DNA of 64,000 nucleotides from Bryum argenteum (Eukaryota; Streptophyta; Bryopsida; Bryales; Bryaceae): contig CM073321.1 of the NCBI GenBank assembly GCA_037043015.1, positions 30,854,101 to 30,918,100 on the forward strand, written 5' to 3'. The notes under the pieces were generated by a model, which worked only from the letters and a program-made list of their open reading frames with translations, ran no database searches and had not been told where the DNA came from. The position numbers and the translations under genes were made by a program. The stretch's first letter is position 1, and each line of letters begins with the position of its first letter. Of the stretch, positions 13,298-41,764 are shown in pieces.

Positions 13298-13973
13298 TCA
13301 TTCTTCGCTTGGGCCCCCTTCATTATAAAGTTGGCTTGGCCCCCCTTCATCCAAATGTGCTTCATCTTCCTCCATCGTTTGGTTCGGCTCCCCTTCATCC
13401 ACTTCGCGCCTTTCGGTTGTTTTCTTTTGAATCTGACCAAACTATGTCCTCATCAGGGATTCCTCCTCTGTAACCCCTAGGCGTTGTAAGACCTTCTCGT
13501 GGGTTGGCCGCTGGATAAGGAGCTCGCGGAATATGGGATTCTGTAGGCTTAATTGTTTGAGGGGATTTTTTTAACGTCCTCCAATCCACCTCCCTCTCCA
13601 AAATTATCTCCGCGTACACCATTTGTGCTATGTTGTACGAAACCTCGTTGCTCACCACATGCACACCGGCGTAGAAAAACTTCCACACTTCAGTGCATCG
13701 TTGCACAAATTCATCGTGATTGCAATAGTGCAAATTCGCGCTATTCAAGCGGCAATGAAACTCGTGACGATAGTGTGGAAACAAATGGCCGATGTGGCAC
13801 CAAGCAATGTACCACTTGCAAGTCTTAAGGGTCCACGGTCCCTCTACTGTGGCCCACCCCTGAAAAGCATGTTGCGTGGGATCTATGAAAATCTTGTGAA
13901 ATCTTCTTTGCTTCTTTCCTTTCCTCTTGCGGTCCTTGTCTCTCGCTATCTTTCGCTCCTCGCTAGGCGTCAT
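13298..13973 (-). pseudogene. WCHI family gene, copy A
   Basis: The start is ATG 13973 (MTPSEERK), aligned with MATPGQLRK of copy D rather than the upstream ATG 13994. The N-terminus is basic (KDRKRKGKKQRR), followed by a tryptophan (AFQGW) and the family core: WCHIGHLFP, RHEFH, N-x-ANLHYC, FVQRCTEVW, NEVSYNIAQMVYAE and VDW. His and Cys spacing suggests metal binding (inference). The frame ends at a stop near 13395, but a shifted frame continues an acidic, repetitive tail (DEGGPSQ, NEGGPSEE) to 13298, so one frameshift is likely. A GGCGACC cluster lies about 280 bases upstream. Function is unknown. Confidence 0.55.
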
Positions 13974-14254
13974 CGTCACCCAAATGCTAACCAACGAAGA
14001 AAGTTTTAAAATAACTCAAAACAAAGTTATATCTATTCCGTGGACAAACACAGAATTTGAAATAACTCGAAAATTGGGGAGCATGCATGTGTAAAAAGTA
14101 AACGTGTGGCACGGGAGTGCCAATCACCGTACGCTCTAGCGCTCGAACAAGCAGGCGGCAACCAGAGGTCGACACCAGACAATGCGCAAGGCCCGACACG
14201 TGGAGGTGAAAAATGGCAACTACCGGTGTCCGCGCGCGTATTTGTAACTCTGGT

Positions 14255-19162: not shown

Positions 19163-20032
19163 ATGGAGGCACTACCCGTTGTAGCGGGTACATCCATGGT
19201 GCCACATGACCGAGGTTGGATTGAGAAGAAGGGCATAGACATCTTGAAGAATCCGAAGATATTAGCGTTTAGAGGATGAGAGGAAGAAACGGAGCCGTGG
19301 TCTTCTGCCATATGTGAGAGATATGTGGAGTGGTGCCACATCAACAAGCTCTTTCCTCTACATCGGCACAATATTCATTGGCACAAGAATGAAGCAAACC
19401 TCCGAGAGTGCCACCATGACCTATTTAAAGAAAGATGCATATATGCTTGGCATTTGATATACGGTAACAACCATATGATTAAATATGAGGTTCCCTACTT
19501 TTTGGCAACAATGGCATATGCGGAAATGATTCTCGAGAAGCAGGTGGATTGGTCGACGCGTCCACGTTTGCCTATACAAGAGAAGAGTGAACCAATAGAG
19601 GTTGGAGAGACATCAAAGACTATTGAAGGAGATGGAATTGGAGCTATACCTATGAGCCCTAAGGCCAACGCGGAATTTTACACAGCAGGGTCTTCTTCCG
19701 AATCCTCGGAGGATGAACACACACACGAATACGAGCTCAGTGAACTGAGTGAACGAACTGGTCCTCCAAGAAATTGGACGGAGGGGATTTCCTATGAAGC
19801 AAATCCACTCCGAACAGTGGGTGGAAGATTATCTGAATTCATGGATACTTATCTCATGTTGTACAATTTCAGTATAGGAACATGCACGCAATTGGAGGAA
19901 GTATTGCACCATAGAAAGGAATTGGAAGCCCTCAAAGAAAGAGCCCTTTCTGCTGCTGAACCATACGATTTACAAGAAGATTGTCGGGAGACTTTGGAAA
20001 AAATTGGAGACTGCATAGCTTACATGGAGACC
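19163..20032 (+). pseudogene. WCHI family gene, copy C, 5' part (interrupted by MULE-S)
   Basis: From ATG 19163 (MEALPVVAGTSM) one frame runs to the MULE-S junction. A TGA at 19277-19279 replaces the conserved Trp of the AFRGW motif seen in copies A, B and D. The core is WCHINKLFPLHRH, ANLRECHHD, MAYAEMILEK and VDW. An acidic Ser-rich stretch and a Leu/Glu-rich, probably helical segment follow (QLEEVLHHRKELEALKERAL). At 20032 the frame meets MULE-S; three codons (Met-Glu-Thr) lie inside the duplicated target. The frame resumes at 39010. Function is unknown. Confidence 0.7.
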
Positions 20033-20669
20033 GGGGAATACACGTATGCGAGCAGAGAGCGGAGAGTGTAGAGCGTAGAGCGGTGAGAAATTAAAGAAAT
20101 TTACAAGGAATTTTTTGGGAGATTTTGAAACAAATGTACCCTATTACCAAAAAAAATTCTAAAAATAATATGTTTTTTAAAATATTGTCTTAAAATAACG
20201 GCTCTTAATTCCGTGGAAAATTTTTAAAAAATCTTAGTATCTATAACATAGTTACTAAATTAGGGCTGACGTCATCAATTAAATAAACACAAACATAAAC
20301 CAAATTTTCATAAATTCTTCAAACCTCTATCCAATTAGGGCTGACATCATCAACACCATGTAAGCAATCACTAGTATCTAATTCCACACTCGAAGTTTAA
20401 AAAAAAACATCAAAAGAAGGTATTATTTGCTAATTTTGAGAATTTTTGGCAGTTTTGGGGATAGTCTACTGTAAAGTTTTATTCACTATGACCTACGTAA
20501 TCAAAATATGAATATAAAAGCTTTGAAAATTTTATTCCAAAATACTAAAAGCAATGAAATATATAATATAATCAATCCAAATCCACATAATAATATAGTT
20601 AGACAAATAGTTTAGAAACTAAGTGTCTCAACCTAAGTATATCAAACTCAAAATACTAGGGCGTTGGCA

Positions 20670-23600
20670 TTAGTAACTATCGATGAATCCATTCTCATCA
20701 ACCTCGGCCTCATCGTCTATAAATCTAAGTACACGAGAATTATACTGGTGCTTATTACTACGCTTTGCAATTGGCGACGACGCGACTACAAGTTGGTTTG
20801 CAAGTTGCTCTGCATAGCAAGGTAAACCATAAGATTGAGGAGGAGTAAGTAGAAAGCTTGGAGTCCTTTCATTTTTGCACTTCAAATCTTCTAGTCTGTC
20901 AACACAAAGCACAGAACATAAAAAGTTAATACAAACACTTCAACCAAAAAGAGTACGATTAACTAGTCACTTTACAACTTACGCACTATTGATTTCCATG
21001 AAGGTAGATTTCTTTCGTGGTGCTCGACGAGATGGACGAACTGCGGCAGAGTTTGTCACTGAAACTGTTGGTACAACAATCTCCATAGGCTTCAAAAGAA
21101 CATCAAAAATCTCCTTGTCATTCTCGAGGGCTATCAAGTGGCGATTGCTCTCCTTGCAAGCAATTATAGATGCACCTGAAATTGAAATTATTATATTGTC
21201 AAGAACAACAAACAACAATAACTACAATATATGTTCAAAAATTACAATAAAACATTACATACCCGTGGATGCTGCATAATCTATGACAATGTCTCCTGGT
21301 TCAGTAAGGCAATCTACGAAGCATTGTATATATGACGGATGTTTTTCACGAGCGCCGCGCCAAGGGATCTCTCCGCTCATTTGTTGATTCTCTTCGTTAA
21401 TGTAATTGGTGGAAAAACCATTGTCATCAAGTCGTACCCCAACTTCGAACCAATCAGTAACATCCTTTGTGTCCCAACGTGAGCCGAGACGAGTGTAGAC
21501 CTTAACACTAAACGTCATAGTCTGCAGAAAAAGACATATATGCATTAGACTATTGGAATGCACGAATCAAATCATAAAAGGTGAATTAGATATAAGTTAC
21601 ATGAGAAAAGAAATAAATATACAAAGTAGTAAGCAGAATAACATTTTTTCATATATTACAACCCATATATTAAAGAATTAAAATTACAAAACAAAATGTT
21701 CTGAGAAAATAAACAAAATTTCATACCAAACATTCATACAATTTGATCAATTAAAATTGAACGAATGTCCATACAATATGAAAGATTCATTTAAACCATT
21801 GTAGCCAAATGAGTAAATTTTACAAACTTGTTTAATTATAATAATCAATCTTAAATCAGATTCGCGCAATAAACATAAAAGATTTCTTCACAATTCCTAT
21901 ACACTCATGCCTATCAGGCATGCCTTACATTTGCATGAAATAATGACAATCCTAATCCTAATTAATACGATACATAATAAATTGAAAAGCAAATCAGATA
22001 AAACTAATTTGAGAAGGAAAGAGTAATACCCGCTTATTCTTTGTAGTTGTGGAAGAAACGAAGAGGCCATTGATTCCATACCAATTGCGCACGCATTGAA
22101 AACGTGCAGCCTCTGCAGAGTCTTCCAACTCTTCAAGAACGTCTGGCTCATTAGGAAGGAAGAAAAGGATGACAGCATCATCGTGAAGATTCATGTGTGC
22201 AAATGTGAACAACCTGCCAAAGTACTCTTCACTTCGAGAATTCCATGAAGGAATTGAGTGGGGAGAAACGATAGGCACAGGTAGGTTCTCGGGAACATCG
22301 GCAATGAGAAGGTCAACGCCACCATGACGCCCATTCAAGTGGGATGTGCGCCGCGTACGAGTATGTTCAATCTGTTAATTACACAAGATTTAGATTAGAC
22401 TTGTGAGATATAGCTTAAAACAAAAGATGCTAAAATTTAGTAATGAGGTGAGGAAGAAAAATTTAACCTGTTGAAGGAAAGTTTGAATACGTAGATAGAG
22501 AGCTTTCCATTCTTTTTGAAGATCATTACACTTGCGAGTAATGATTTCCTCCATATTGCAATTTAGAAGCAGAAGTGACACAGGAAGTGATCGAGAAGCA
22601 CTTGAGGTTCTTGTGGGGATTTGCGGCTCACGGAAGAGAGGATCTCGAGGCAAATCTGAAGCAATACTAACATGTGTGGTAGAAGGGGCAACCTGAGATG
22701 GTGTTTGATTGCGTCGAGCTGAAATCTGTGCAACATTATAGGCAGTATGAAGAAGGTCAGGATCAGAGGACTGAGTGTGCTCATCAGGAGATATTGGCAC
22801 CTGAGAAGTTCTTTGACTAGCATTTGCTGTTCTCGTAAATGAACGAGTAGCAAAGGATGGGGTTGGTAGTGCCTCCTCTTGGGCATGCTTGTGCTTCTTT
22901 GATCGCTTGGAGTTGGAAGTCTTGGCAGGAACCTCTGTGATTTGAGTATCATCATCATCATCAAAAGTAATTGGAGTTTGTTCGACTACAAATGCTCCTT
23001 CAAGAGAGACATACACATCTCGCTCATCCGAAGGCACAAAATTTTCGACGCAATCTAGATACCATCCAGCAGATCCAAGGTGCTCTGCTGTAAAGCGAGC
23101 ACGATGAGCATCAGTAAACATGTAGTCTGCATTAGTTGAATCAAACCAATTGTTGAGGTAGTAAGGATGATCAATTGCGCCTTTTTTATGAAGCTCGTAT
23201 GCGACATACCTACAAAAAAACAACAAAGGAGGTGAGCGATACACATGATGAATCAGAATAAAAAGTATAATTATTAGTAGCACTTAAAAAGTAGATACCT
23301 AAAAGTCGCACGTCGAATCACTTTACTACCCTCCTCAAGAGAACCAAGAATTGATCCTTTTGCAAATTTAATAGGCGATCCACGAAGGAAAAACACATTA
23401 AATGATTTGTGCCAGACCATTCTTCTCCACTTCTCAATGTACGCTCTTGGTAGCATAAGTCCTCCGTCGACTTCACGAGTGACCTGAACATCATTCATTT
23501 GAATGATCTTTGTACACAGTTTGTCAACAGCGACTTCAAGCTGCATAGAAAACAGTATCAGAAACACAAACATGTAAAAACGTACGCAATCTAAAATATA

Positions 23601-25229
23601 AAGATTAATGAATTACTTGGGCCCAAAAGGATGCTTTGATCAGCCAAGCATCGAGTGACGCATCACAAAAAGGTTTCTCAATAGGAAAGTGATTATCCTT
23701 CCTTACGGATAATGATGAATTCCACCACTGAAGCCATGTGACTTTGAATTCTTTCTCGACTGCCGTAGAAGCAATTTTTTGAAGCTTTTCAATACTCATT
23801 TCTGGAGGCGTTCGTATTTGGTAATGAGTATTAATCTGCACATGATGGTTCAAAAATTAAATAAAAATACAATGGACTTACAAGTAATGCATATACATGA
23901 AAACTAATATATAACCTCATGGGCAAACGATTGGCCCAGCCGTGGATCTGCAACTGCAAGCAACTTCTCAAAACCTCTCCCCTTAAGCTGCTTGATCTTA
24001 GTAGCTGCGGCTTTTTCCATGTGTTTCCAAACCCCGGTTCCAGTACGTAAGTCTGCGGGAGTGGTTTCGTTGTACACAGTAAGGGATGCATCCGCAGTAG
24101 CAGCAATTTCACGCTATACAAGTAATGTCAAATGTTAGAATTTATTTGAAAATATAAAGGCAAATATATAGATAAAAATATAGGTGAGGAAAGAACAAAC
24201 TTACACGATAGAGAAAGGCAATGAAAACATCAACAGTCAATGTATACCACTTGTCTGGATTTCTATCACGCTCTTTAACACATGCTGCCATCTCTTCCTT
24301 GGTAATTAATTGTTTGAACTCTTCAAGCTTCATCTCTCCAAATGTGCGCATTCGCGTTAACGTCGCAGGCAAACTGCTTTTAACATGGTCATGCTCAGTA
24401 GACCTGCATGTTAAAAACAACAACAATTAGAATAGTAACTTTTGTCAAACACAACTTGTAACAATATTGAAAATATAATCTTACCAGTTAACATCGTTCA
24501 TTGCATTCAATAGAATGCTCTGCATGCCATTTCTTGCATCCACAATGATGCAATCAACGGATATGTGCCACTCAGGTTTCTTGGAGTGTAGTTCCTCGAT
24601 GTGACTCATCCACGCTATCAACCGATGGTTACCTTCATACACCCAAAACATCTTCCCAGAAAGACGTTTCAAATGCTCGTCTTTCGCCAAGAATTCTTCG
24701 AACTTGTTATTGGCAGGTATCCAATGCTTGTTCCAGTTAGATTTTATGCCATCCGTAACAACAAGTTTTTCATTGTCTTTATTCCATGGTGAAACATAAA
24801 GTGCACGATCACCTTCATGATAGCCTGATGCAAACTCGCGCTTAAGGCGAGTCACATCGATGGCGTTGAGAGGACAAACCAATGGCAAACTCCTCAATCG
24901 ACAGAGCGGAATGACCATACGTGCTTTCTCGGACGGTGCTAATCGAAGACTTGATATTATGGCTGTAGAATCACCCTTCAGTGTCATACGTAGCTGGTTC
25001 TCAGATTCCAATGGGTCCTTGAGCTCAGGTGGGTGGGGTGGAAGAGGAATAAGTGCCAAAGCATTGCTTGCACTTGCGTGAGCAACATCAACATCATCAT
25101 CTTCTGTTTGAACACAATTCACAACACATACATACAAATAATTTAGAACCATGAATTAAATGCATAAAATGTATCGAATGAAAATTATTTATATATACGG
25201 TCTAGGAAGTGATTGTCATTGTTGTGCAT
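20670..25229 (-). CDS. ParB-like and N6/N4-methyltransferase-like protein, 11 exons
   Basis: Exons 25229-25199, 25103-24485, 24403-24205, 24113-23916, 23835-23617, 23540-23299, 23209-22468, 22371-22030, 21521-21263, 21175-20983 and 20895-20670 total 3270 bases: 1089 residues plus stop. All introns are GT-AG, phases agree throughout and no stop is internal. Exon 1 (31 bases) is the least certain. Residues about 80-200 resemble a ParB-type fold (NAIDVTRLKREFASGY, then EGNHRLIAW at 168-175). Exon 7 is a low-complexity linker with KRSKKHKH. The C-terminal third has the beta-class order: a motif IV-like strand (DLLIADVPEN), then PGDIVIDYAASTGASIIACK and LIALENDKEIF, resembling motif I. DPPY is not conserved, so catalysis is doubtful. 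It reads toward the left MULE end. Domain names are my motif-level inference. Confidence 0.65.
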
Positions 25230-26834
25230 CTAAGTAATCTCAAGTCCTCCATAGTGCATACTACAACTAAACTAGCATGCTTGTTTATCTCCTCCATAGG
25301 CACGAGCCAAATAAATGATCAACATCAAGCTTGATTTTTGAACATCAAGCCACATGAGCGATATGATATCCTCTTCCAGCAAACCACTTCGTAATCCCCT
25401 TCCATTCATCATCTCCTTCCTTTCATCTTTTCTTGACAAGATTATATCGTCCAGTTAGCTTTGTCTCTCCAGAGAAATCAATGAGTTTGATGAATCACCC
25501 CTTCAACACCTCAAACGTCACAACTAGTGTGCATTCACACTTTCTCCAAACAGTTGTCCCTACACATGCAAGAGAAAAGATTTACTTCAGAAAGGTGCAA
25601 TTTATTGTTAAACATCAAAAAGTACATGAACACTCTGCCTAAAAATACACAATAATGTAGTAAAGGTATTACATAGTTCACCCCTACTTGGCATATACAA
25701 AAGCACAACTTTTAGGCAGGAAGAGCAAAAGTTTTAGGCAAGTGCTTCTTGGATCTACTAATCTGTATTGGCAAAAGCAATTTATTGATGTAATCCTAAG
25801 AATGCAATTTGAATATTCAATTGAGCATGAAGAAAGCTATTCAAGCAATGAAGCACTTACAAAGATTAAGCCCAGCGCAATATGCATTCACAACGCACTG
25901 CGTACATGGACACTGTACCGTCCACCTGGTGCAGAAGTGTCGATCTTACGGTAATACTCGCATTGGTACTGGACTAGGCTATTGCACTGCTGTGCACAAA
26001 GGCTGCTCGGTCAGGTTCGTGGCAGAGCATTTGTCGGTGGCTCCCTTTGCGAAACCTACGGAGGGATTCAAAGGCACCCTCGTTGCCGAGGGTGCCGCCC
26101 AAGGAGCTTATTTCCCTGGCTTAATACCCATGCCAGTAACTCTAAGCGATCACCTTCATCGTCGTTGCCATCACCTATAAAGCGCATCTTCTACATGTCT
26201 AGCATAAGGTCCCGACTCCCGAATCACAAGTCAGTAATATCCAATTTATCTCAAATTGGGCACAACCAGCGCGTTACGTTTACTCTCCAATGTGCGACGT
26301 GATTTTCGAGGACTTAACCTGAGTAGGAATCAAACAACAGACTAGTAGCGTAGAAATGAGACGGGCATTACCGATCGGCATTGCAGCTTGTCAACAATCA
26401 AGTTCGAGTTCTAAGGTCCTTAGTGCGAGACGAGCACCCACAGCTTATCATCCTCCGCGGGGCGTCACCCGCAGCTTATCATCACTCCAAGTTCACGCAG
26501 TAACACTCGCTGAACAAGAGTATCTATTCTAAGATCGTACCCTCTTCGGTCGAAAATCCATCAATGATCTAGTGTTACAGTGTAGCTGCGTTAGTTTGAC
26601 ACATTAAAACCTGGGGGTCCAATTTCTAGTATCGAAATTCATGTACGATAAGGTAGAAGATGAAATTGACATGTTCTACTTTCAATTCACAGTCGTCAAG
26701 GTTAACAACACAAAAAATTAGGTTCGGGAGCCAGGCTTACCATGTAGAGCTGCAGCGAGGTTGCCCATGGGCATGAAATCAGAGATGATGAGCTTCTCGT
26801 CTTTCGAGTAGTAATAAGTGCGCGCAGACACAAC
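25230..26834. other. Interval without a supported gene
   Basis: Upstream of the ParB/methyltransferase gene. Short frames (for example 25433-25642, 25688-25954, 25982-26302) show no recognisable product. One isolated CCTCGTTGCCGAGG core at about 26083 belongs to the minisatellite family at 28158-28705. Confidence 0.4.
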
Positions 26835-27857
26835 ATTGATAAGACTATGAGTGGGCTCTTTCCACCCAGTTCCAATGTCACTGGCTGCACAATAAGCAAA
26901 GACAAGCCTAAATAAGCTTCAACTTCTGTATGTAGTCATTGTCATCGTCATAGAAATCTCCGTTAGTATCATGAAAGGCAGATTTTGTTTTCAAGCAAGA
27001 GTTGAAATGGCGACCTTGATGAGCTTGGCTGCCGCGGACATGATGGATCTACCACTATTTGTGCTTCCGGTGAACGCTACTTGTACTCACAAGGCCACGA
27101 GGCATGTGAGCGCCGACTTAAACATAACATGAAGAAGAAATATTTTTAATTCGTAAAAGCAGCCCACTTATGCTCAGCTTCGCTGACTATGATATTGCAA
27201 AAAGACTTCATACACACCTTGTCTACACCTGCATGAGAGGCTAAAGGTGCACCGGCCTCCTGTCCATATCCAGTGATCACATTCAAGACTCCTCGCGGAA
27301 GTCCGACGTCATTGGCAATACTTGCCAACTCCAAGCACGTGCTAAAAGATCAAATCATACAAGTCATCAGCTCACAGGGAACCGAAATTTGAACAAGAGA
27401 GTCACAAGACGAAGACCATATGCTAATTGTGGACAATGCAAACCCTCACAAATCAACAATCAGCCTCACAATGTTCACTTCATCACTAGTGTGAACAATC
27501 ATAAAAGAAGAGAGTGATACACTTACACAAATGCAATTTCAGATGGTTTCAAATTGGCAGTGCACCCAGCTGCAAGCGCAGCAGCTACTTTTCAAGTAGC
27601 CATTAGCATCGGATAGTTCCTGCAAAACGAAACGCCATAAGGTTCAGAGAACCCCGCAGTTTAGACCATTAGGAGAGAACATAGCAAACATCATGTAGGT
27701 TCCGTTACCATGGCGTAATAAGAGCGACAACTCCCATGGCCTCTCGCAATACGTTACATTTGAACTGCTCCATCGGAAGCTCTAGAGGAGCGTACTGCCT
27801 CTCGTCCAGCTTCTCGGCCAGGTCTGCGTAGTACTCAAAGCACCCTGAGAGATCATC
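26835..27857 (-). pseudogene. Captured ALDH10 (aminoaldehyde/betaine aldehyde dehydrogenase) fragment
   Basis: Read leftward, exons lie at 27857-27709 ([23 protein letters not shown]), 27619-27527 (NYPMLMAT, ALAAGC, KPSEIA), 27341-27218 ([20 protein letters not shown]), about 27076-27003 (AFTGSTNSGRSIMSAAAKLIK) and 26884-about 26835 ([14 protein letters not shown]). These match consecutive exons of plant ALDH10, which oxidises aminoaldehydes with NAD. Intron splice sites remain, so capture was at the DNA level. A Trp is TGA in exon 2 (MAT-stop-KVA). The N-terminus and the catalytic-Cys half are missing; after ELGGKSP the homology ends. This is typical of Pack-MULE gene capture. Confidence 0.8.
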
Positions 27858-28157
27858 CTGGCATCATACGAACAGGCGAACAGAACTCAAGCTTCGTGGA
27901 TGATGAAATGCTAAAACCTCAATGAAGAACACATGGATAACAATCAACAAGATTTACCGATAGAAGTTCCACATGATAACATAGAATCCATTTTAAATTG
28001 GATGATTTCAATGAGACGGGTATTACTTGATCGGCATTGCAGCAGGGGGCGAGCAAGGAAATGTAATGTATGAAAGCTCCCTCAAAATGACGGAATGGGA
28101 GCCCTCCTCACATGAATGTTGCGATGTTGCAGTTTCCCCGCAACGACGACGACGAGA

Positions 28158-28705
28158 CCGCCCTCGTTGCCGAGGGTGCCATGTGGGGATGTCATTGCCC
28201 TGTGTTGAAGACCACCCTCGTTGCCGAGGGTGCCATGTGGGGATGTCATTGCCCCGGGTTGAAGACCACCCTCGTTGCCGAGGATGCTCTCTAGGGGTGT
28301 TATAGCCTTGTGTTGAAGACCACCCTCGTTGCCGAGGATGCTCCCTGGGAGCTCATCGTACTGTATTGTCAGTATTGAAGACCAACCTAGTTTCCGAGAA
28401 TGCCGCCCAAAGAGCTCATTGCCCTAGGTGCCGCTTGGGGAGCTCATCTAAAAGGAAAGGTGCTAATTAAAGACCGCCTTCATTGCTGAGGGTGCCACCT
28501 CGGGAGCTCATTGCTCAGGATTGACGACCACCCTCGTTGCCGAGGATGCTGCCTCCCTCAAGTACCTGCCACACGGGACTATTAACGACCACCCTCGTTG
28601 CCGAGGATGCTGCCTCTCTCAAGTGCCTGCCATACGGGACTATTGACAACCACCCTCGTTGCTGAGGATGCTGCCTCGAGTACCTGCCACACGGGACCAC
28701 TCAGT
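28158..28705. repeat. Minisatellite with hairpin core GACCACCCTCGTTGCCGAGG
   Basis: About nine imperfect tandem units of roughly 54-62 bases (one longer) each begin with GACCACCCTCGTTGCCGAGG. The core ACCCTCG-TTGC-CGAGGGT is a 7-bp stem with a four-base loop. The units spell Pro/Ala/Gly-rich frames, so the overlapping ORFs are artefacts. Confidence 0.8.
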
Positions 28706-28868
28706 CGTTCGAGTCTTCCAGCATCTACCAAAAAGTCAGCTCTGCAAGGGAGCCAACATCCTCTCGACCACCTGTGGGGTCACATCACATCACCCAATTA
28801 ACGAACACAATCTGGGTACAGATTTGCATATGATTAGTACTCTGCAGGAGTCTTAATGGTGTTTATAA

Positions 28869-30820
28869 TCAAAGCAAGCAAACCTGATCAAGTGTGTGAA
28901 GATCAGACGAGTGAACTGCTTTAGTGAGGTTGGCCTCCTGTGCATTGAACCACGAAGGACTTGTACCTTCTCGCTCATCCCGTCCCTCAATTCCAATGAA
29001 AAGAACTGGGAACCGTTTGTTCAGAAGCTCATCCCACTCCACCAGAGAGTTTCGGCTTTTGTCCGCGCATGCCACAAGCTCTCCGTCGTAGAAGAGACGT
29101 GAAGGGAGGTCGAAAATGGCAGAGTGCGAACGATAGTTCCGCACCAACTTCGTCACCAAGCTGTTGTTATAAACAAGGGACATGCCATTTGCACTTGGTA
29201 CCTTCAGCATCAAACCAGTTATCAATGATGGCAGAGTGCAACTGCTTACTCTCTTCAAGCATTTCCTCCGACGGCGGTGTGCAGCCGATGTAGCTGTTAT
29301 TCTCCCAGCAGTATCGTAACAGCTCATTCCAGCACCGATCCTGCAGAGGCCCATCAGCGATGCGGTCAATTCTATTCAAGCAGGGTCCCAATAAGTTTGT
29401 CCCTTATTCTCGGTCTACATCAGTGACACAAATCTGATCTAGACCTTGAGCTCTATACCAGTCTCCAAATGAAAGCACGCTCTCACGAATGATCAAGGGC
29501 TTCTGCATGGGTTTTTGATCTTCAAAACAAATACGCTTTCAACGTGGAAGGAGCAGATTGGAATTTGAGGCATGACTTTTTGAGTGTCTGTCATACATTC
29601 TTTGAATTCGTGAGTACAAAGACTACGAAGTATCCGGGATACTGAGTGTGGTCGAGAGAATACCTGAGAGAGGACGTGGGGGTTGCAACCGCTGACCAGT
29701 AGAGCTTTGGCACGCGTAATTGCGACATTGAACCGCTTTGGATTGGTAAGGAACCCGAGACTGTGCTTCTTGTCGAACTCCACGTGCTCCTTGCTGGAGC
29801 GCACGGTCGAAATGATAATGTCTCGTTTCTCTTGACTTTGGAAGGATTCCACACTCCTGACCTTCACGTCACCCAAACTCTGGGCTGCGAGAGCCTTCTT
29901 AAGTTTGCTGACCTGCTGGTTATACGGAGATATGACACCAATATATGTGTGAAGCACTTGACCCGGCTGAATCTCTTCAGCATCTAACATGGCGGCACTC
30001 CAGTAAGTGGTTACCACGAAATGGTACTTCATGAGCGACGCTTGATCAACCTCAGCATGTCACGCTTTTCAATGGACTCCATCAAGCGCTCCAGCAATAA
30101 ATCGGACGCAGAGTTCGAAGGTGCACATGCCAGGATTCGAGAGTTCGGGTGGGCTTTTCTCACTTAAAGAATGGCTTCAACAACAGTCACAGTTTCTCCT
30201 GTTACAGGTGGGCCTTAGATCAGATAAGGAGGAGCGCCTTTCCTCGTCAAAATCTCAGAGATAGCACTCTTTTGCTCTGCATTGATTGTCCTGTTGAATG
30301 GGCTGAATGAAATGATTTTTCTGCTATTGTCTGGCATGGTGGGAAGCGGTGCACTTGGAAACAAAAACAAATCCAATAAGGCCTCAGCTGCTTGAATTCC
30401 TTGATGGGCACGTCTAAGGTTGACTCGACCAAACGAGAAACGAATGTCGTAGCAGAGTTGTAGATGAAGCTTTTGTGAAATGCGTCACTGAACCGTAAGT
30501 GCACTTCACAGGCTTGTACTATGTGCACGTATCCCTGTTATATCGAAAGAAGTGATTAAATCAATAGTCAGCTACAGTTATTTCAGGTATCAAAATTGAA
30601 TTGACAGATCAATGAAGCACTTTGACTTCTCAAAATTGAATTGACTCGTGACAGTTGAAAATCATCACAAATCCAAAAGCTTAGCTACCTGAAATTCCCT
30701 CGTTGCTGAACCAGAAGGCCTCACGTAGATCTTGTCGCGATAAATAACAGCGGGTCGCCTTTCTGCCAGGCCTGGCACGTGAAGTCCTAAGATTGAGTGG
30801 CTTACTTTCCACATTGGTCA
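28869..30820 (-). pseudogene. Captured SDE3/MOV10-type RNA helicase fragments, rearranged
   Basis: Pieces of a superfamily 1 helicase of the plant SDE3/MOV10 group are present. About 30775-30690: VPGLAERRPAVIYRDKIYV. 30530-30120: GYVHIVQACEVHL, then NAEQKSAISEILTRKGAPPY and a damaged Walker A (GPPVTGET for GPPGTGKT), ILACAPSNSASDLLLERL. 30000-29650: [51 protein letters not shown] (motifs V and VI). 29350-29200: C-terminal CWNELLRYCWENNSYIGC. A motif III-IV piece (LVTKLVRNYRSHSAIFDLP) lies last at 29200-28870, out of order. Several stops and frameshifts are present. SDE3 helicases act in RNA silencing; this copy cannot be functional. Confidence 0.75.
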
Positions 30821-31125
30821 CGTTCTGCATATCATAGGCTCGAATATCCACCTGTATTACATTCAAACAGATTAGTTCTTGAACTCTCAAGGACATAAGA
30901 TGACAACTGCTGTCTAAATGGAACGGCCAAACTGGAGCTGCACATGGACAAACTTGGAAATTGTAACAAACGTCCATAAGGAGCTGAGAGGAGGTGAATA
31001 ATATACACATTTTGACCACGCATGCACGATGAAGATAATTGAAGTCCACATTATGAACAAGTATTGATTGGATACTGTAATTATTTTTATGCGGCGTCAA
31101 CTTATACCGAATCTGCCGAAGTGTA

Positions 31126-31290
31126 AGAAACCCTAATATTGTCGGAGAGTGTACCTTAACGGCGGCGACCTGTCCCCGATGCGCATTGCTCCTTCTTCTT
31201 GTCAACTTCGCTCTCCCACGCTTTCGAAACGCCATCCTCGCCAACGAAGGCACCAGGCTCCAGCCATACTCCTTCACTGGGAAGAATCAG
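31126..31290 (-). repeat. Duplicated copy of terminal exon of the small acidic gene
   Basis: About 150 bases match 31858-32001 closely. The segment encodes GAFVGEDGVSKAWESEVDKK on the minus strand and ends with the same GTGRRR-stop. The copies lie about 735 bases apart in direct orientation. Confidence 0.75.
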
Positions 31291-31887
31291 AATGCCAAAC
31301 AACGCACATGTTCTCCATCTTGGCGCGTCATATTGGCAAGCATTGAAGTGAGATCCCTCGGGTGCAGAACCAGCCATACTCCTTCACTGCTGCAGGTATC
31401 AAGCAGAGGACGTCCACAATCAGCCGCGGTAACCACAAACAACATACGAGACGAGGAGACTCATCAAACAAGCCGACTGGAACAACTCATGCCAAAGGAT
31501 TTACGCCTACTTCACGGGCGGCGCTTGTTGCCAGTGGAACCACTCTCAAAAGTCAAATAGCTAACAGACTCAAAATCAAGAATGCCCAGGGGTCGGAGTT
31601 CTGAGACCTGAACAGACAGAAAGTATTTTCAATGAGGAATCATCTCTTTCATTTGGAACTTGACTCTACCACATTCGAAATCGGTTAACCTAAAAACAAT
31701 TGCCCAATCCTGTCCAAAAAACCTGAAGTCCTAATACGGAACCGCAATACAAGAGCTCACTCATAACTTCAAGCGCCCACGGCACTTCCAAAACAACGAT
31801 GCGCCGACCGCTTTCAGATGAATCTCTATCACATAGGAAAACTCGAAGCATCCGATACGAAACCCTAATATTGTCGGAGAGTGTACC

Positions 31888-33260
31888 TTAACGGCGGCGA
31901 CCTGTCCCCGATGCGAATTGCTCCTTCTGCTCGTCAACTTCGCTCTCCCACGCTTTTAAAACGCCATCCTCGCCAACGAAGGCACCATTCTCCAGCCGAA
32001 CCTAATATCAGAATTGAGGAAGAGAGATGTAAGATTACCTGATGTGTGTTTGTCAGTTCGCCCTCGCTTGTCATCTCTTTGTTTTGCTTAGTTTCGGCAA
32101 GCCCATCTGCAACTGGCTCGCCTTCTTGACGCTCGCTTGGTTCACTTCCTTCTTGTTCAATCTCTGCACCCTCTTTGTGCTGAGATTGGTCCCCAAATTC
32201 TTCACTTCCCTGCATATGCGCCATTGGAAGTTAAATTTCCACCAAAGCAGTATTTCGGAAAATAAGCTCTCGAGAGGAGATCTATTAGAGAACAACACGT
32301 GCAATACTCCTTGACTAAGCAGAGATTTGAAACTTCCTCGAAAATAGTGATATAGAGCTTCTAATAGGGTGATCACATGCAAATAGTGCTTATAGTAGGG
32401 AGAAGCTTGAAATTATTTAAAAATATTTTAATGTATTCATTCTAAAATATTGAAAGGGCACTTCCTTTTTTTATTAATATGAAAATATCTAAGTCACATT
32501 GTAAGCTGGTTTCATATACATTAATCTGACCCCAAATTTGAAAGGTCAAGTTGAACACTTTGCATTAAATTTTATGTATTGATTAATTGAGAGAAATACA
32601 ATCATGAACCAAAGTATCGAGCTACTTGGCACACGCTTAAATACATGAAGGATTTTGTATCATAATTTGAAAATAAAATGGTATATTGAACAAAATCCTT
32701 CATTCATCAATATACTATATGAATAATATTATTTTCAATAAAACTATACAATAAATGAATAAGTTATAGTTCGAGAAAAATTCACTTTCAGAGATTCAAA
32801 CCGTACTACAAGTTTTGCGTACATAAGATATATAAAACATAAATTATAAATATGTGAATTGCTTCTGTAACAACAATATTATTTGTTGCTTATATTTTTT
32901 ACATCTCGTAATTTAACATATTAAATAAGGTGCTTACTTGATAGAGTATATCATCCTCCTGATCGTCCTCAAAGCCAAGCGCACGATTGTCTTCTCTCGC
33001 CATCATGCGAGGATTTTGTGTAAGCCTTGGAGATGCGTGTCTTTGTGTTAATTCCTCGCTCTCTGAATCGCTTACTATCGTTCTTTTATGTCGTCGTGAA
33101 CCACTTCTCCGAATCTGAAAACACAATGGGTTTTGTGATTTGCCCAAGATAAACACTCTTTCTTATAGCTATATAATTTTACACAATCATATTCTGTACT
33201 TACATCTACTTGATGATCCTCTTTGTTCGATGCGCGAAAATTGTTTGACAAACTCGCCAT
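31888..33260 (-). CDS. Small acidic accessory protein of MULE-S, 4 exons
   Basis: Exons 33260-33204, 33114-32938, 32209-32039 and 32001-31888 are all phase 0 with GT-AG introns and total 519 bases: 172 residues plus stop, with no internal stop. The protein has a basic patch (IRRSGSRRHKRTIVSDSESE), a long Glu/Gln/Ser-rich acidic middle and a C-terminal segment GAFVGEDGVLKAWESEVDEQ ending GTGRRR. A further 5' exon may exist: the ORF at 33581-33387 ends in a good GTGAGT donor, and a phase-0 join just before the ATG at 33260 is possible though its acceptor is weak. The gene diverges from the transposase at 34578. No family is recognised. Confidence 0.5.
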
Positions 33261-33386
33261 GTTCTTGATTCTACACGATTCTTGTTCGCGTTCTTCAATC
33301 GAGCAAAGATCAAGTATTCGAACTTTACACTTTGAACGCCAAGATGGTCCACTTTTGTTTCGTTCTTAGAATGGAAACTTCCTTCT

Positions 33387-33581
33387 TTAGTAGACCGCCT
33401 CACTCACTAATTTCTCCTCAGGTATAACACTAGGTGTAGCAACATCTTCAAGTGCACTCACACCTCTCCTGCGTAACGCGCTTCGTCGCCTCTCCTTAGA
33501 AGTACTAAACTTTGTTCCCCCTCGTCTCCTCTTAGGTCTCGCCCCTACCACATTGTCTCCGCTTTCACCTCCCTCCTTCAT
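33387..33581 (-). CDS. MULE-S accessory ORF or first exon, conserved with MULE-1
   Basis: ATG 33581 opens a 64-codon frame with KRRRGGTKFSTSKERRRSAL, aligned to the 1-317 ORF of MULE-1. Inside it, after EEKL, lies a consensus GTGAGT donor (near 33404), so the stop at 33387 may be intronic and the exon may join the small acidic gene to the left. It lies about 1 kb upstream of, and divergent from, the transposase. Confidence 0.5.
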   Translation of the reverse strand: MKEGGESGDNVVGARPKRRRGGTKFSTSKERRRSALRRRGVSALEDVATPSVIPEEKLVSEAVY

Positions 33582-34577
33582 GTGTGCTTAAGAACCTATA
33601 CAGCAGCGTGCACAGTACAACCTTTTAGTCTCAACATAAGGTAGTGGCGGCTCTCTCTAGTTGCTTTTATTTATACTTACTCAGACTTGTCTAAGAACTT
33701 TCTAGACAAAGACAATCTAAGTTTAGTTTTTGTTGAATGTGTGTAACAGTCATCTTTAGATGCTAATGTATTTTTCATACTTATATAGAACTAATCTGAC
33801 AAAGACGGCCACCATCTCTTTTCCGAAGTTATCAAATACTAAATTACTTTACAGCTTCGATATATAAGTCTGTCAACTACATGCCAATCAATGATACCAT
33901 CTAAAATTACCTCTGACCCAACATGTTCTTACTTTAATAATATCAATAACACAGTCCAGACTGTACAAGACGATCTCTTCAAATCTCTCCCCTTTCATAC
34001 CTTTTCCAATTGCCAGTACATGACTTAATTTTGCAAACGAACTTATGTCTAATGTCATCCACATTGGGTTACATTATGGATCTCATCCACACAGGGCATC
34101 TGATTGGGAGCCGTCCCAACATTACTCTCTGAACAATTCTAAATCAATTCTGACAGCCGTCGTTTTATTAAGTGTAGAATAAATATGACATCCATTGCTA
34201 ATCTATTTTTCAAAATCATACACTTATATGGAACTAATCTGACATTGACGGCCGCTGGCACCTTTCCAGATAATTGACCGCTCATCGTGTATGCAGTTTC
34301 CAAATTCAGGTCTAACCTATGCATGCAAATCAAATACTTCACCCTAAATTACAGCAGCAATTGGCGTGGCCACAATTCGGTAAGATCCAGTAGCTTTATA
34401 ACTTAGAATTATGCAAAATTTACAATAACCGCGGTAAATATCATGAAAAATATCCATGCCGGCCTACTGTAGTTTATCCCGTTTCTACACACTTCATAAG
34501 AATATAAAGATCTGTCTCTCGTGTTCAACCCTCTTTCTCTAAGTCCATTATAGCGACCCCTCTGGCTAGCTTGCTTC

Positions 34578-37500
34578 ATGGCTTCCTCCTCTTCCCAGCC
34601 ATCTGTTCTGAATGTTATAGAATTTAGGTCTGGTAACTTTGCAGCCCCTACATGCATTCCTCCAGGTCCTGACGGTGTGGCAGAAATCACACCACACTGG
34701 CTTGGCATTCGATTCGGTTTTGACACCGCTTCGGTTTGGTTAGAAACCGATGTTGTTGACTCTGTCACTCACAACGTTCAGTATTCCTTGGTTGTGAAGC
34801 CAATCCTCTTAGAGAACAACTCTAGCATATGGAAACTACCAGTCGGAAAGTATTGCGTATATGGCATGAGCGTGTCTATTATGAACGCATCCACTCAACT
34901 TCTCACTCCGCGTAGTTCGTCTACTCTCTCCACTGTTGCTCCCCTACTTTCTCGTGTCAAGGTCGAATCATGACTACGTGAAACTATCGATTTGTCAGAT
35001 TCTGACGACAATGAGCGAAGGCCTTCCTATCAATCCAGCAGACCTTCTACAATACTATCATCTCCATCACCTGCTTTTGATAGCTCCTTACAATCTGCGC
35101 CCTATTCCTTCGACTCTATACAATATTCAAAACCCAAAAAAATTCTTCCTTCCATCCTCAAGTTAGGTAGTATGCCTGGTAGCAAAACCGTGCTCAAGAA
35201 ACTAGATTAGGGTAATATCCAAACTCTGAATGTTGATACTCTGCCCCCATCATTCAATGGGGACATACTCTTCATTCTACCACCGGCTCTTCCATTTGCA
35301 GCTCATAAACAAGCAAAATCTATGGAGGGCATGGACAAACGATTCGACGGACATATCTGGACTAGAATCATGACCACTAACATTTCCAACACCATGGGAT
35401 TGACTTTCAGATCTTCTAACTATGTTGGTCATGTTCAGTGTCACAATCAAAGTTGTGCGTTTCTACAACGATCAGAACGATCAGCTGGCGTGAACGAAGT
35501 CGAGTACGAAGGGATCTCGAAGGAAAGCTTCCCTGTTGGTGGCCCACCTCCTCCTACATCCACCATCGTCTGCAAGATCTGTAAGGAGCCTCCTGCTTGT
35601 GTTGCAGCATGTAGCGCTAAGATTTTCTATATCTTTGGAAGTAAAGACCAAGAGAGAGCATGCGTTCACATTGGGACTCATCATCACCCAGTCAAGGTTG
35701 GTGAGTATAGGGGCACCCGTAGAACGATAGACGAGCTTTTAGAAGATCACGTCGAACGTAACCCCCAAGCCACAGTTTCTAAGATTGTTATGGAGACTAG
35801 CAACGACCTATTAGGTAACTTCCTCCTTCACAAAGAGGGTGAGGCCAATACACATCTTTCATTGAAACAATTAGAACCTCTCTTTGACAGTTGCAAGGAG
35901 CTCAATTCTCCAAGCGTGAAAAATAGGATATACGGGTTCAAGTACTTACGCCGATTTGGCATCATGGACGGCATTACAAAATTGAGAGGGCTTAGTAATT
36001 GGGCCTTTGTTCAGCGCAACCAGTTTCCAGGGCAAGGAGATGATGGTGACAAAGTCTTCATCTTCAAGATGTCAGAGGTTGGGCCATGTAGCGGGGTCAA
36101 TCTAGTCGGACGAATGCAGCCCGGTGCTCCCCTAAACAATGCGTGGATGATGTTTGATCATGTCAAACGAGTGGCAGGTTGGACAACCATGGCGTGCCAC
36201 GTGGATGACTCAGATTTCCAACGAGTACTCACCATTGCTTGTTGTGATTTTCAGTCTGAGGACAGAGAAGCTCAGATTGTGTTTTGGAAAAACCTTAATC
36301 ATGTCATGTCCCGCCACGGTATCTCTAAGCCATACTTTAAAGGATTCATGGCTGATAGTGCTCAGGCCAATTGGAATGCTGTTAGAATTGTGTACGGTTC
36401 GGGCAATCCCTCTGATCCCCTCGAAGGTCGTGAGAGAACATGCTTCTTCCACTGGGCCCAATCTCTGGAGAAGCACACCAAACAATACATCATTCATGAA
36501 TTGCAGGATCAGCATAAGCATCTATGCTTTCAATATAAGAATGCCTCGTCAATGGAGGAGGCTGAGACCCGGTTTTTGGCTATCAAAGCGTAGTGGACAT
36601 CATCAGGGGCAGCATCTGAAGAAGGCGCAACACGATTGGGATTCTGGCTAGCATTCTGGCATTACCGATATCGCCAATGGGGGGATTCATGGAACTGTTA
36701 AGAATACTCTTACCGCTGTGGTGGATTATTTATTCTACTGTTTACTGCACAACTGCAGCCACTGTAGGTGTCAGTACAATATTCTAAAAAAATTCCACCT
36801 TAAATCTACTAATTTTTTTTTTTATTTTTTTATTTTTTTTGTAACCTCTCTTGTACGAGAGGTTTCTCCAATCACCATTTTTATTGACTTTGATTTCTCC
36901 CTAATTTCCCTAAACAGGAGAAAAAATACACTCCAGAGGAAATTGCGGAAATGCCATCTTGTAATCTTGCAGAGACTGTACACAACAAATGGCTTCAAGC
37001 TTCGGGAAACAAAGGTACAGACTTGTACGTTGCGGCGGTAGACGACTATGTTCGAGCATTTCTGCAAGTGGTAGCTTACCATCATTTCAACAATGGTGGT
37101 AATGGTGCTGGTGGACCTTCAGTAGAAGAACTTAAACTACGCTCAGCCCAACGAAAAGCACATCGTACTGGTGATCCATCGGCCCTCAATGCTACCATAA
37201 TAGAGTTTTCTGAAGCTGAAAAATATTGTACTCGGGATGCACATCTAGAGGGAGCTGAGGTATTTGGTTCCAAACCACGGATGCCAGATGTACCAATTGG
37301 AGCTGAGGAGGAAACTCATCGGCCGGACACTGTGAACTTCTCACATCCTAAAATAGGGAGGAGGGTTACTCGAGCTCGTGCTCAAACTCTGATTACAATC
37401 AACGAGGAGGATGAAGTTGAGGAACGCCTAGTTGAACCACTAGCATCCGTTGGAACCGATATCACACGTGTGACCGCTGTTCTTGAGACTAAAGTCAACG

Positions 37501-38372
37501 AGAAGCTATGGCACATTGCTCGTCTCAAGGAGTCTTCATCCAAGGCTTGTTGGACAATTATGGCCGGGAGCAAGAAAAATTGCAAGTCCCGCATTGTCCA
37601 GCATGGGAAGGCTACCCCAGCTCCAACCTACACCGGGATATGGCATCCTCCTAGAAAAAACAAAGTGGAAGAACATTTCTTTTTCTGTGCTGACGATATT
37701 GAGCGGTGTGTGAAGGGCCAGCGTCGAAGGTGGGTTGAGCAGTTCTCCCGTAACCAAGATAAACCGCCTATTCCTTCAATTTGGCCTGTCAAGATAGGGA
37801 CAAAGCTCACACGTACTGAGATAGCTGCTTTGAGGAATGCGGGATTTCAACTCCCTCAAAAGGAACAGCTTCCTATCAACCGCACGTTTTCTAATACTGC
37901 ATTGCCAAAGGATTTGTCTCACATTCCAGTGCCAGACGATGCTGATGTTTTTCCTAAGAGGCGAAACTCTAAGACCCTTCGTCGTCTCATCCATAGTGCT
38001 AGCTCAAAGTATATGAAGAACGTTTATTCTGCCCAGGCTATGGAAGCAACCATTCTGAAGGTGACCATGATACCTCAACCCGCTCTTGGATGCACTGTTA
38101 CGTTGCGGTCTAAACCGGCGCCGACCGAGTCAGTTTACCATATCACAATTAGTTCAAACCCAGCATGCACATGCCCAGCGTTCAAGGATACTCTAGTCAC
38201 CTTAGGGAGAAAAGGACATCCGTATAAAAATTGTAAGCACATGTACTAAATCATGATGTCGATGTGCAATCTAGATGTTGACGTGGACCTCTTTATGCAT
38301 GCTCCTACCCTCAGTTTCAACGAGGTGAAGAAGATCATTGAGAGCGGACTTCTAGACCATGTTACATCTTAG
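34578..38372 (+). pseudogene. Mutator-like (MULE) transposase with SWIM zinc finger, copy 2
   Basis: Homologous to 849-4654 over its full length but clearly diverged. Exon 1 is one frame with stops at 34971 (TGA), 35208 (TAG) and 36591 (TAG, where copy 1 has Trp), then a one-base loss near 36689 beside the damaged intron donor. Exon 2 starts at 36918 after CTAAACAG and is open to a TAA at 38247 inside the SWIM finger (CTCPAF ... CKHMY). The remaining C-terminus reads in phase to TAG 38370-38372. The DDE core motifs ACCDFQSED, FKGFMADSAQANW and CFFHW are intact. It cannot make full-length protein. Confidence 0.8.
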
Positions 38373-38470
38373 ATCACCACACTTACATGATTACTATATA
38401 TAGATATATAGATGTATTGACGTACACTACATACGTTATGTAATACAAAATATCTACCACTTTGTGAGTA

Positions 38471-38525
38471 TCATATACTACAATAATATATATATATATA
38501 TATATATATTATTGTAGTATATGTG
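38471..38525. repeat. (TA)n-centred perfect palindrome
   Basis: CATATACTACAATAATA, a run of alternating TA, then TATTATTGTAGTATATG: arms of about 17 bases around alternating TA. It can form a cruciform or hairpin. It lies 100 bases after the transposase stop and might act in 3' end formation or be a fragile site (inference). Confidence 0.7.
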
Positions 38526-38814
38526 TTTTCACCACCCAATATGGCAACATTTGTTACGTTGAGACAATGGGAGCACTTTGAGACTATAAGGATATTTTAG
38601 GTCTATTGGATTTATTACCAAGTCGAAGATAATACTTGAATGCAACCTTTGGGAAACAATGGTATTCATATATATTGATATGTAAAAGCCTCAAATTATC
38701 AAAAAGATTCAGTATTGAACATGTAGAACAATTTTTCTTTATCCATGGATAAAATATGAGTCTTCAAATTGCCGTCAATGTAACGAATATCGCCATCAAT
38801 CTTGAATTATACTA

Positions 38815-39000
38815 TCCTAAGTTCCACGGTAATGGGTACCAAGTTCCATAGTCATGGGTCAGGAATATACGAATATTCTCAAGAATATTCTCATTTTATT
38901 ATTTTTATTTTTATTTTTAATATTTGTTTTATTAATAATAAAAAATCTCCGCTCACTGCTCTCCGCTCAACGCTCTATGCTCGCATACTAGCAACGTCCC
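38815..39000. repeat. MULE-S right terminal segment
   Basis: An AT-rich stretch with AATATTC motifs is followed by tandem CCGCTCA/TGCTCT-type units and GCATACTAGCAACGTCCC. It is similar to 4930-5135 (MULE-1) and, inverted, to 20033-20090. Confidence 0.65.
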
Positions 39001-39009
39001 AGGGAGACC

Positions 39010-41629: not shown

Positions 41630-41764
41630 GGATGAAATAGCCAAAATGGCGAATAGTTATTACCTATCCGGAACGAGCATGCAGCCAATTTAATGTATGT
41701 AAGAGAACGCCCAAGGCCCGTAAACCCAAATAAGAAGTTCAGATACAATGGGGGAATATATAGG

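What the first reader, a model, noticed from the sequence alone, without database searches (positions are those of the whole stretch)
20670..25229. Intact 11-exon ParB-like / DNA-methyltransferase-like gene in a Mutator-like element
Amid decayed transposons this gene keeps 1089 codons with all exon phases consistent and no stop. A ParB-type EGNHRL segment joined to a beta-class methyltransferase order (motif IV-like strand, then PGDIVIDYAASTG) is a prokaryote- or phage-like combination. Mutator-like elements in Arabidopsis (VANDAL) carry anti-silencing genes, so an epigenetic role is an attractive hypothesis.
Basis: partly seen in the sequence, partly recalled or inferred. Interest (0 to 1): 0.9.

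Follow-up and report, generated by a model that had tools for sequence, protein, structure and literature searches.

The report
Plant transposon gene with bacterial-like parts
A large jumping gene of a probably moss-like plant carries a second, selectively maintained gene built from two bacterial-type parts (a ParB-like DNA binder and a worn methyltransferase) next to arrays of matching palindromes, which suggests a way for the element to recognise and protect or regulate its own DNA.

Summary
On the minus strand, 25229-20670, 11 GT-AG exons give an open 1089-codon frame. The gene lies in an 18,968-bp element (20032-38999) with terminal inverted repeats, an imperfect 9-bp target duplication and a decayed Mutator-like transposase pointing the other way. 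Two searches gave 1129 and 1210 candidate ParB-exon places in the 259-Mb genome, 150 scored in each; 42 of 92 transposase places have a listed copy within 25 kb, all 42 divergent. Exon 2 models as a ParB/sulfiredoxin fold. Exons 8-10 match beta-class N6/N4 DNA methyltransferases, but catalytic DPPY reads mostly D[V/A]PEN: probably a pseudo-enzyme. Subfamilies B and C evolve under purifying selection. New here: palindromes with a TCG-N4-CGA core 5' of the gene, often in tandem arrays, with subfamily-specific arms; subfamily C lacks them. Best reading: the protein binds these sites and regulates or de-silences its own element, working like VANDAL VANC. ParB-methyltransferase accessory genes are already reported from algal transposons (PMC12477816), so this is a new variant of a known kind. 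No function was tested.

The parts
20032..38999 (.). whole transposable element, 18,968 bp
   Evidence: terminal inverted repeats plus 9-mers outside that agree at 8 of 9 positions; end sequences like those of family elements D25 and D26
20023..20031 (.). left target-site duplication CATGGAGAC (8 of 9 identical to right)
39000..39008 (.). right target-site duplication CAGGGAGAC
20044..20086 (.). left terminal inverted repeat arm
   Evidence: longest inverted repeat of 19000-41000, 43 nt, 79% complementary
38946..38988 (.). right terminal inverted repeat arm
20670..25229 (-). ParB/methyltransferase-like gene, 11 exons: 25229-25199, 25103-24485, 24403-24205, 24113-23916, 23835-23617, 23540-23299, 23209-22468, 22371-22030, 21521-21263, 21175-20983, 20895-20670; 1089 aa
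24485..25103 (-). exon 2: ParB/sulfiredoxin-like domain with EGNHRL
20983..22371 (-). exons 8-10: beta-class (N6/N4) methyltransferase-like domain; motif IV ADVPENLP, motif I DYAASTGAS
   Evidence: PF01555 below its gathering score, PHROG methyltransferases, PDB 5hfj
26073..26096 (.). perfect 24-bp palindrome GGCACCCTCG-TTGC-CGAGGGTGCC, putative operator
28155..28341 (.). tandem array, 54 bp x 3.5, with the inner palindrome CCTCG-TTGC-CGAGG at 28162, 28216, 28270 and 28324 (outer arms imperfect)
28520..28697 (.). tandem array, 61 bp x 3.0, inner palindrome at 28532 and 28593 (outer arms imperfect)
34620..38366 (+). Mutator-like transposase remnant with 3 in-frame stops
   Evidence: weak SWIM match (16.1 bits, cut-off 19.6) in the sister copy at 3200-4654

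Best explanation
The gene is a lasting accessory gene of a large Mutator-like transposon family. Shown by computation: it sits in the element, opposite to the transposase, in every co-located pair listed; its N-terminal domain has a ParB/Srx-type fold; its C-terminal domain derives from a beta-class DNA methyltransferase but has lost the canonical catalytic motif; two subfamilies are clearly under purifying selection; four of five subfamily groups carry palindromes with a common TCG-N4-CGA core and subfamily-specific arms in the noncoding DNA 5' of the gene. Inferred: the ParB-like protein binds those palindromes as an operator (as ParB binds parS), and through its methyltransferase-derived part competes with or recruits chromatin factors, so that the element's divergent promoters stay open or are tuned. 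That would be sequence-specific anti-silencing or self-regulation, working like VANDAL VANC without being related to it.
For: Divergent in 42 of 42 co-located cases, about 3.5 co-locations expected by chance. Fold. Methyltransferase homology. dN/dS over the whole gene 0.10-0.16 in eight pairs within subfamilies B and C. 35 strict palindromes 5' of the gene in 21 loci, 0 in 85 kb of gene bodies, 0 in 31 kb downstream, 0.2 in shuffles. Genome-wide 808 matches against 6 for the reversed-pattern control, 44 against 0, 9 against 0 with all 9 in the window element and its one close relative; one palindrome can match on both strands. 10 of 18 site clusters in the capped listing (C1, first 12 Mb) lie within 5 kb 5' of a listed gene, none within 5 kb 3', chance about 2e-12 even if all 1210 candidates were genes; an eleventh had a gene on inspection. 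Arms differ on both sides together between subfamilies (AGCCTT..AAGGCT, AGACTT..AAGTCT, GGCACCC..GGGTGCC). VANC targets also form diverging tandem repeats (PMC5735166 section 9).
Against: No binding, expression or methylation data exist. The core was chosen after looking at the same 21 loci, and sites inside one array are not independent. By the strict rule only 10 of 21 loci have sites; the four subfamily C loci L015, L016, L019 and L023 have none even by the relaxed rule, though two of the best-kept genes are there or close by (L015 is intact). Relaxed matches also occur in gene bodies (7) and downstream (6), and subfamily D elements have such sites near the far end and in the transposase region. 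The motif-free palindrome scan also found palindromes without this core. Subfamily A and D pairs show relaxed dN/dS (0.40-0.73). Palindromes could be bound by the transposase or a host protein. ParB's CTP-binding motifs were not tested.
Confidence: 0.55

Rival explanations
1. Active DNA N-methyltransferase: despite the changed motif the protein methylates A or C in the element's own DNA, marking it as self or permissive.
For: Homology to PF01555 and to PDB 5hfj; the Ectocarpus authors propose that such proteins bind and modify their own transposon (PMC12477816 section 5); the methyltransferase part has dN/dS 0.05-0.33 in subfamily B and C pairs.
Against: No copy read has DPPY or DPPF; the aromatic residue is E, D or K and the first proline V or A, and motif I lacks the first of its usual glycines (canonical motifs recalled).
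Confidence: 0.2
2. Transposition co-factor (like maize MURB, recalled) or ParB-type nickase that helps excision or insertion; the palindromes are sites for this step.
For: Pairing with the transposase; a ParB domain fused to an adenine methylase (Bce_0392) is reported to nick DNA non-specifically (PMC5512222 passages); subfamily D has relaxed sites a few hundred bases from one end.
Against: In the other subfamilies the palindromes lie in the interior 5' of the gene and not at the terminal repeats.
Confidence: 0.15
3. Host gene captured by the element and carried passively; the arrays are unrelated satellite-like expansions.
For: Mutator-like elements tend to acquire host gene fragments (PMC6446971 abstract in the listing); many copies are broken; helicase fragments lie in the same element.
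Against: dN/dS far below 1 within subfamilies B and C, constant arrangement, palindromes shared while the repeat units around them differ.
Confidence: 0.1

Closest known systems
ParB plus N4C/N6A methyltransferase accessory protein of Sola1-1_Ec32 (Ectocarpus; similar proteins cited for green and red algal transposons), PMC12477816
   Same: Same two domains, nearly the same length (1104 aa against 1089), on the strand opposite to the transposase of a giant DNA transposon (21.5 kb against 19 kb)
VANC anti-silencing proteins of Arabidopsis VANDAL elements (PMC5735166, PMC10398659)
   Same: Accessory gene of a Mutator-like plant element; targets (there shown, here only candidates) are noncoding tandem repeats that diverge between subfamilies
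   Different: VANC has DUF1985/DUF287 regions; the passages read mention no ParB or methyltransferase part; function here is untested
Bacterial and phage ParB-methylase fusions, e.g. Bce_0392, and polyvalent proteins (PMC5512222, passages)
   Same: ParB-like domain and adenine-methylase domain in one protein
   Different: 1089 aa, split by introns, long middle region, changed catalytic motif, in a eukaryotic transposon
Retrotransposons carrying cytosine methyltransferases in dinoflagellates and charophytes (PMC5890265, abstract)
   Same: Mobile elements that carry a DNA-methylation gene
   Different: C5 enzymes shown able to methylate CG de novo, in retrotransposons; a different enzyme class

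Membership tests
ParB/sulfiredoxin superfamily | characteristic alpha+beta fold | tested here: met
ParB/sulfiredoxin superfamily | conserved arginine in the active pocket (GxHR) | tested here: met
   G157, N158, H159 invariant and R160 at least 90% in 20 copies; N158 invariant and G157, H159, R160 at least 90% in 77 sequences
ParB/sulfiredoxin superfamily | sequence match to a curated ParB family | tested here: inconclusive
   phrog_1033 'ParB-like partition protein' in 11 of 20 copies, best E 0.0036, and 16 of 77 sequences, best 0.0021; no ParB family among the Pfam rows shown
beta-class N6/N4 DNA methyltransferase (PF01555) | domain homology | tested here: met
   all 8 rows match PF01555, best E 1e-5; window row 24.3 bits, under the gathering score 26.7; six of the 8 rows are clean copies; PHROG methyltransferase best 6.3e-9; PDB 5hfj E 4.8e-5 over the motif I half
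beta-class N6/N4 DNA methyltransferase (PF01555) | catalytic motif IV [DNS]PP[YFW] (recalled) | tested here: not met
   D/N-V/A-P-E/D/K-N in the window and in the 21 of 22 models that cover it; no DPPY
Mutator-like element (MULE) | 8-11 bp target-site duplication (PMC6446971) and terminal inverted repeats | tested here: met
   9 bp: TTCACTACT in D25 and CGGGTGCAT in D26 identical at both ends; 8 of 9 in the window; inverted repeats. D28's other end was not fetched
Mutator-like element (MULE) | MULE DDE transposase | tested here: inconclusive
   Invariant D316, D382 and C411-x2-H414 in 32 sequences fit the recalled MULE pattern; PF10551 in 0 of 32, PF00872 Mutator transposase in 1 of 32 at E 0.034; weak SWIM 0.0082; the whole-genome PF10551 search did not complete
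VANDAL/VANC system | DUF1985-type VANC protein | tested here: not met
   No such Pfam match in the 1089-aa protein at E up to 1
VANDAL/VANC system | loss of DNA methylation on target copies | not testable with these tools
   needs methylation data

The most novel reading that the evidence does not exclude
A ParB-parS-like self-recognition system in a plant transposon: a ParB-type clamp loads on element-specific palindromic operators that diversify with its own specificity, spreads over the element and, through a catalytically dead methyltransferase domain, shields it from host silencing. This would be an anti-silencing system independent of VANC, and operator arrays for ParB-methyltransferase transposon proteins, which none of my nine literature searches turned up.
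Probability: 0.25. Interest if true: 0.92.

Novelty: new variant of a known kind. Interest (0 to 1): 0.78.

Why it matters
A well-described plant example of how transposons escape silencing is VANC. Here is an unrelated candidate with bacterial-type parts, a large copy number in one genome, some intact diverged copies and a visible candidate target: palindromes whose arms differ by subfamily. That makes the open question of what ParB-methyltransferase proteins do in eukaryotic transposons directly testable by binding assays, and could reveal new DNA-binding specificities.

Tried and rejected
Single-sequence AlphaFold2 of exon 2 gave pLDDT 35.5 and was discarded. A phmmer search with the whole 1089-aa protein found nothing among the 7996 candidates scored, probably because public predictions split this gene at introns; the exon-2 profile then found 223 proteins, 120 listed. 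Profile search of solved structures with the exon-2 alignment gave two hits of E 0.57 and 1.3, neither ParB. The Pfam rows shown held no ParB family. I considered a captured host gene, a satellite origin of the arrays, a transposition co-factor and an active enzyme (see rivals). A search for recurrent dyads in four subfamily C loci found one recurring often, in L016 only. Three window-to-other-subfamily dN/dS pairs were computed but dS was saturated.

Literature searches. None of the listings showed a ParB-methyltransferase gene in a moss or in a Mutator-like element; the green and red algal reports are known to me only through the citation in PMC12477816 and were not seen.

Papers, what was seen: PMC12477816 section 5 whole and passages; PMC5512222, PMC6446971 and PMC12695648 passages; PMC5735166 abstract, outline and section 9; PMC10398659 and PMC5890265 abstract and outline; others only as search listings.
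Full report
The gene. Spliced alignment of 20 fetched copies and 2 neighbouring partial ones gave 22 gene models. Introns 2-10 keep the window's order and phases in 7 of the 22; in the other 15 one or more introns deviate, through damage or the aligner. L015 and L022 have no stop or frameshift; the other 20 have at least one. Under neutral drift the window frame would rarely survive: simulated frames stay stop-free in 7.9% of runs at 2% divergence, 0.6% at 4% and 0 of 2000 at 7.5%, while the nearest relative L009 has four stops and a frameshift.

The element. The longest inverted repeat in window 19000-41000 pairs 20044-20086 with 38946-38988. Outside them stand CATGGAGAC and CAGGGAGAC, 8 of 9 identical, giving an element at 20032-38999 of 18,968 bp. 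In subfamily D the whole element is about 14-15 kb, with identical 9-bp duplications in D25 and D26. In D25, D26 and the window a transposase gene and the ParB-methyltransferase gene point outwards, each ending near one terminus. The window transposase (34620-38366) has three stops, so the accessory gene is better kept than the transposase. Similar terminal repeats were found 585-1137 bp beyond the gene in 11 of 21 loci; in the other 10 none was found within 1500 bp.

Genome scale. The window lies in a 258.8-Mb genome of 25 contigs. Two exon-2 searches gave 1129 and 1210 first-look candidates, of which 150 each were scored and matched; the transposase search gave 1465 candidates, 92 of them scored. 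Of those 92, 42 have one of 196 listed exon-2 places within 25 kb; all 42 are divergent, at a median of 8.5 kb, where about 3.5 would be expected by chance at any orientation. The window and D26 pairs are among them. Both lists are partial, so the 50 without a partner are not evidence of absence.

The host. Of 120 listed exon-2 homologues (of 223), one names an organism, the moss Ceratodon purpureus (43% identity). A moss-like host is an inference.

Methyltransferase part. The whole protein matches PF01555 at E 0.0003, 21.3 bits, below the gathering score of 26.7. The segment from exons 8-10 matches it in all 8 rows tested, best E 1e-5, PHROG methyltransferases to 6.3e-9 and the adenine-specific enzyme 5hfj at 4.8e-5, over the motif I half; the pairing of 'iiadvPenlpv' with 'IITDPPYNISV' in that output scores only -1.2 bits and is suggestive, not significant. 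No model has DPPY: motif IV reads D/N-V/A-P-E/D/K-N in the window and 21 models, and motif I reads D-W/Y-x-x-x-T-G-A-S. The domain's ancestry is clear; catalysis as an N-methyltransferase is doubtful. The constancy of the changed motif argues for a kept, altered function rather than decay.

Selection. Of 17 pairs computed, Nei-Gojobori dN/dS over the whole gene is 0.10-0.15 in four subfamily B pairs and 0.14-0.16 in four subfamily C pairs, with the ParB part at 0.05-0.09; two A pairs of recent copies give 0.40 and 0.45, two D pairs 0.65 and 0.73; window against L009 gives 0.38; one B-C pair gives 0.09 near saturation and three window or A to other pairs are saturated. Polarised against L010, the window branch has 21 synonymous and 23 replacement changes, the L009 branch 25 and 34, with a distant and noisy outgroup. 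So the lineage is constrained while many young copies decay.

Operators. Arrays of tandem repeats lie 5' of the gene in most copies, with different units by subfamily. A scan for perfect palindromes, made without a fixed motif, showed a common centre in several subfamilies: GGCACCCTCG-GCAA-CGAGGGTGCC in the window and (shorter) L009, AGCCTTTCG-TTGA/TTAA-CGAAAGGCT in A, AGACTTTCG-TGGA-CGAAAGTCT in L018, ACCTCG-TATA-CGAGGT in D; it also found palindromes without that centre. Counting TCG-N4-CGA with at least 5 of 6 outer pairs gave 35 sites in 92.5 kb upstream, none in 85.3 kb of gene body or 31.2 kb downstream, 0.2 in shuffles; with other spacers of 0-10 there were at most 4 upstream. Ten of 21 loci have strict sites. 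A relaxed rule gives 77, 7 and 6; the loci without any upstream site are the four of subfamily C. Over all 64 half-cores and four spacers, this core and its nested forms rank first.

Because the core was picked from these loci and array sites are not independent, the genome-wide tests matter more. TTCGTNNACGAANGNCT has 808 matches against 6 for the reversed control; AGCCTTTCGTTNACGAAAG 44 against 0; the window type 9 against 0, six in the window element and three 1.9-2.1 kb 5' of the L009 gene. One palindrome can match on both strands. I grouped the listed matches (capped, C1 up to 11.95 Mb) into 18 clusters: 10 lie 0.9-2.65 kb 5' of a listed exon-2 place, none within 5 kb 3'; three more lie 6.8-8.1 kb 5' of one, five are far from any listed gene. 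Of those five, two were inspected: one has a gene 1.3 kb away, one has none within 2 kb. Of 15 A-type clusters, four adjoin listed genes; six others, chosen because they hold several sites, were fetched on the 3' side only and all six have gene sequence there, one with exons 8-10 only; these are near-identical copies of subfamily A, not independent events, and five clusters were not inspected.

Mechanism. Two divergent genes with operator-like palindromes in the noncoding DNA between them, a protein with a ParB-type fold and a second, enzyme-derived domain: the simplest account is a DNA-binding regulator of its own element. Anti-silencing is the most attractive version because VANC targets behave alike (PMC5735166 section 9; PMC10398659 abstract). 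Binding, spreading and any effect on methylation are inferred.

Known or new. The Ectocarpus transposon paper describes a 1104-aa ParB plus methyltransferase protein opposite to the transposase of a 21.5-kb Sola1 element and cites green and red algal cases. So the kind is known. What I did not find in print (searches in Tried and rejected) is this combination on a Mutator-like element of a land plant, the loss of the catalytic motif, and the palindromic arrays.

On re-reading my calls I corrected the intron count across copies, the description of motif I, the significance of the motif IV alignment, the distances and the wording of the match counts. Confidence, probability and interest were left unchanged, since none of these alters the argument.

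Noticed in passing
window 888-4651 (+), repeat at about 5079-5113: A second transposase of the same family (72% identical in the ORF compared), with one frameshift and a terminal-repeat-like cluster; its partner gene would lie left of the window.
   Followed up: partly
window 28869-30059 (-): Fragments of an AAA_12 helicase (E 4e-13 and 8.7e-26) inside the element, perhaps captured host sequence; such helicases include silencing factors (recalled).
   Followed up: partly
D26 and D28 (loci L026/L032, L028/L034): A second ParB-methyltransferase gene of the family follows closely; D25 and D26 have the same tandem-repeat DNA at both outer ends, so these elements may gather in satellite arrays.
   Followed up: no
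L016 upstream of the gene: Subfamily C lacks the TCG-N4-CGA sites; L016 has another recurrent dyad, CCGCAGC-TTA-GCTGCAG type, seven times: a possible specificity switch.
   Followed up: partly
P0038: The only named homologue is Ceratodon purpureus KC19_VG030900, on a 110.5-Mb contig, by its tag perhaps the V sex chromosome (reading of the tag recalled).
   Followed up: no
window 13395-14015 (-), 19280-20071 (+), 39881-41656 (-): Three ORFs share, by eye, a W..C..Y..WCHI..LFP..RH..H motif without a Pfam match for the first; the second runs 40 bp into the left end of the element (for Pfam).
   Followed up: no
   Followed up: no
window 42763-43734 (+): Protein-kinase-like ORF, E 2.6e-5.
   Followed up: no
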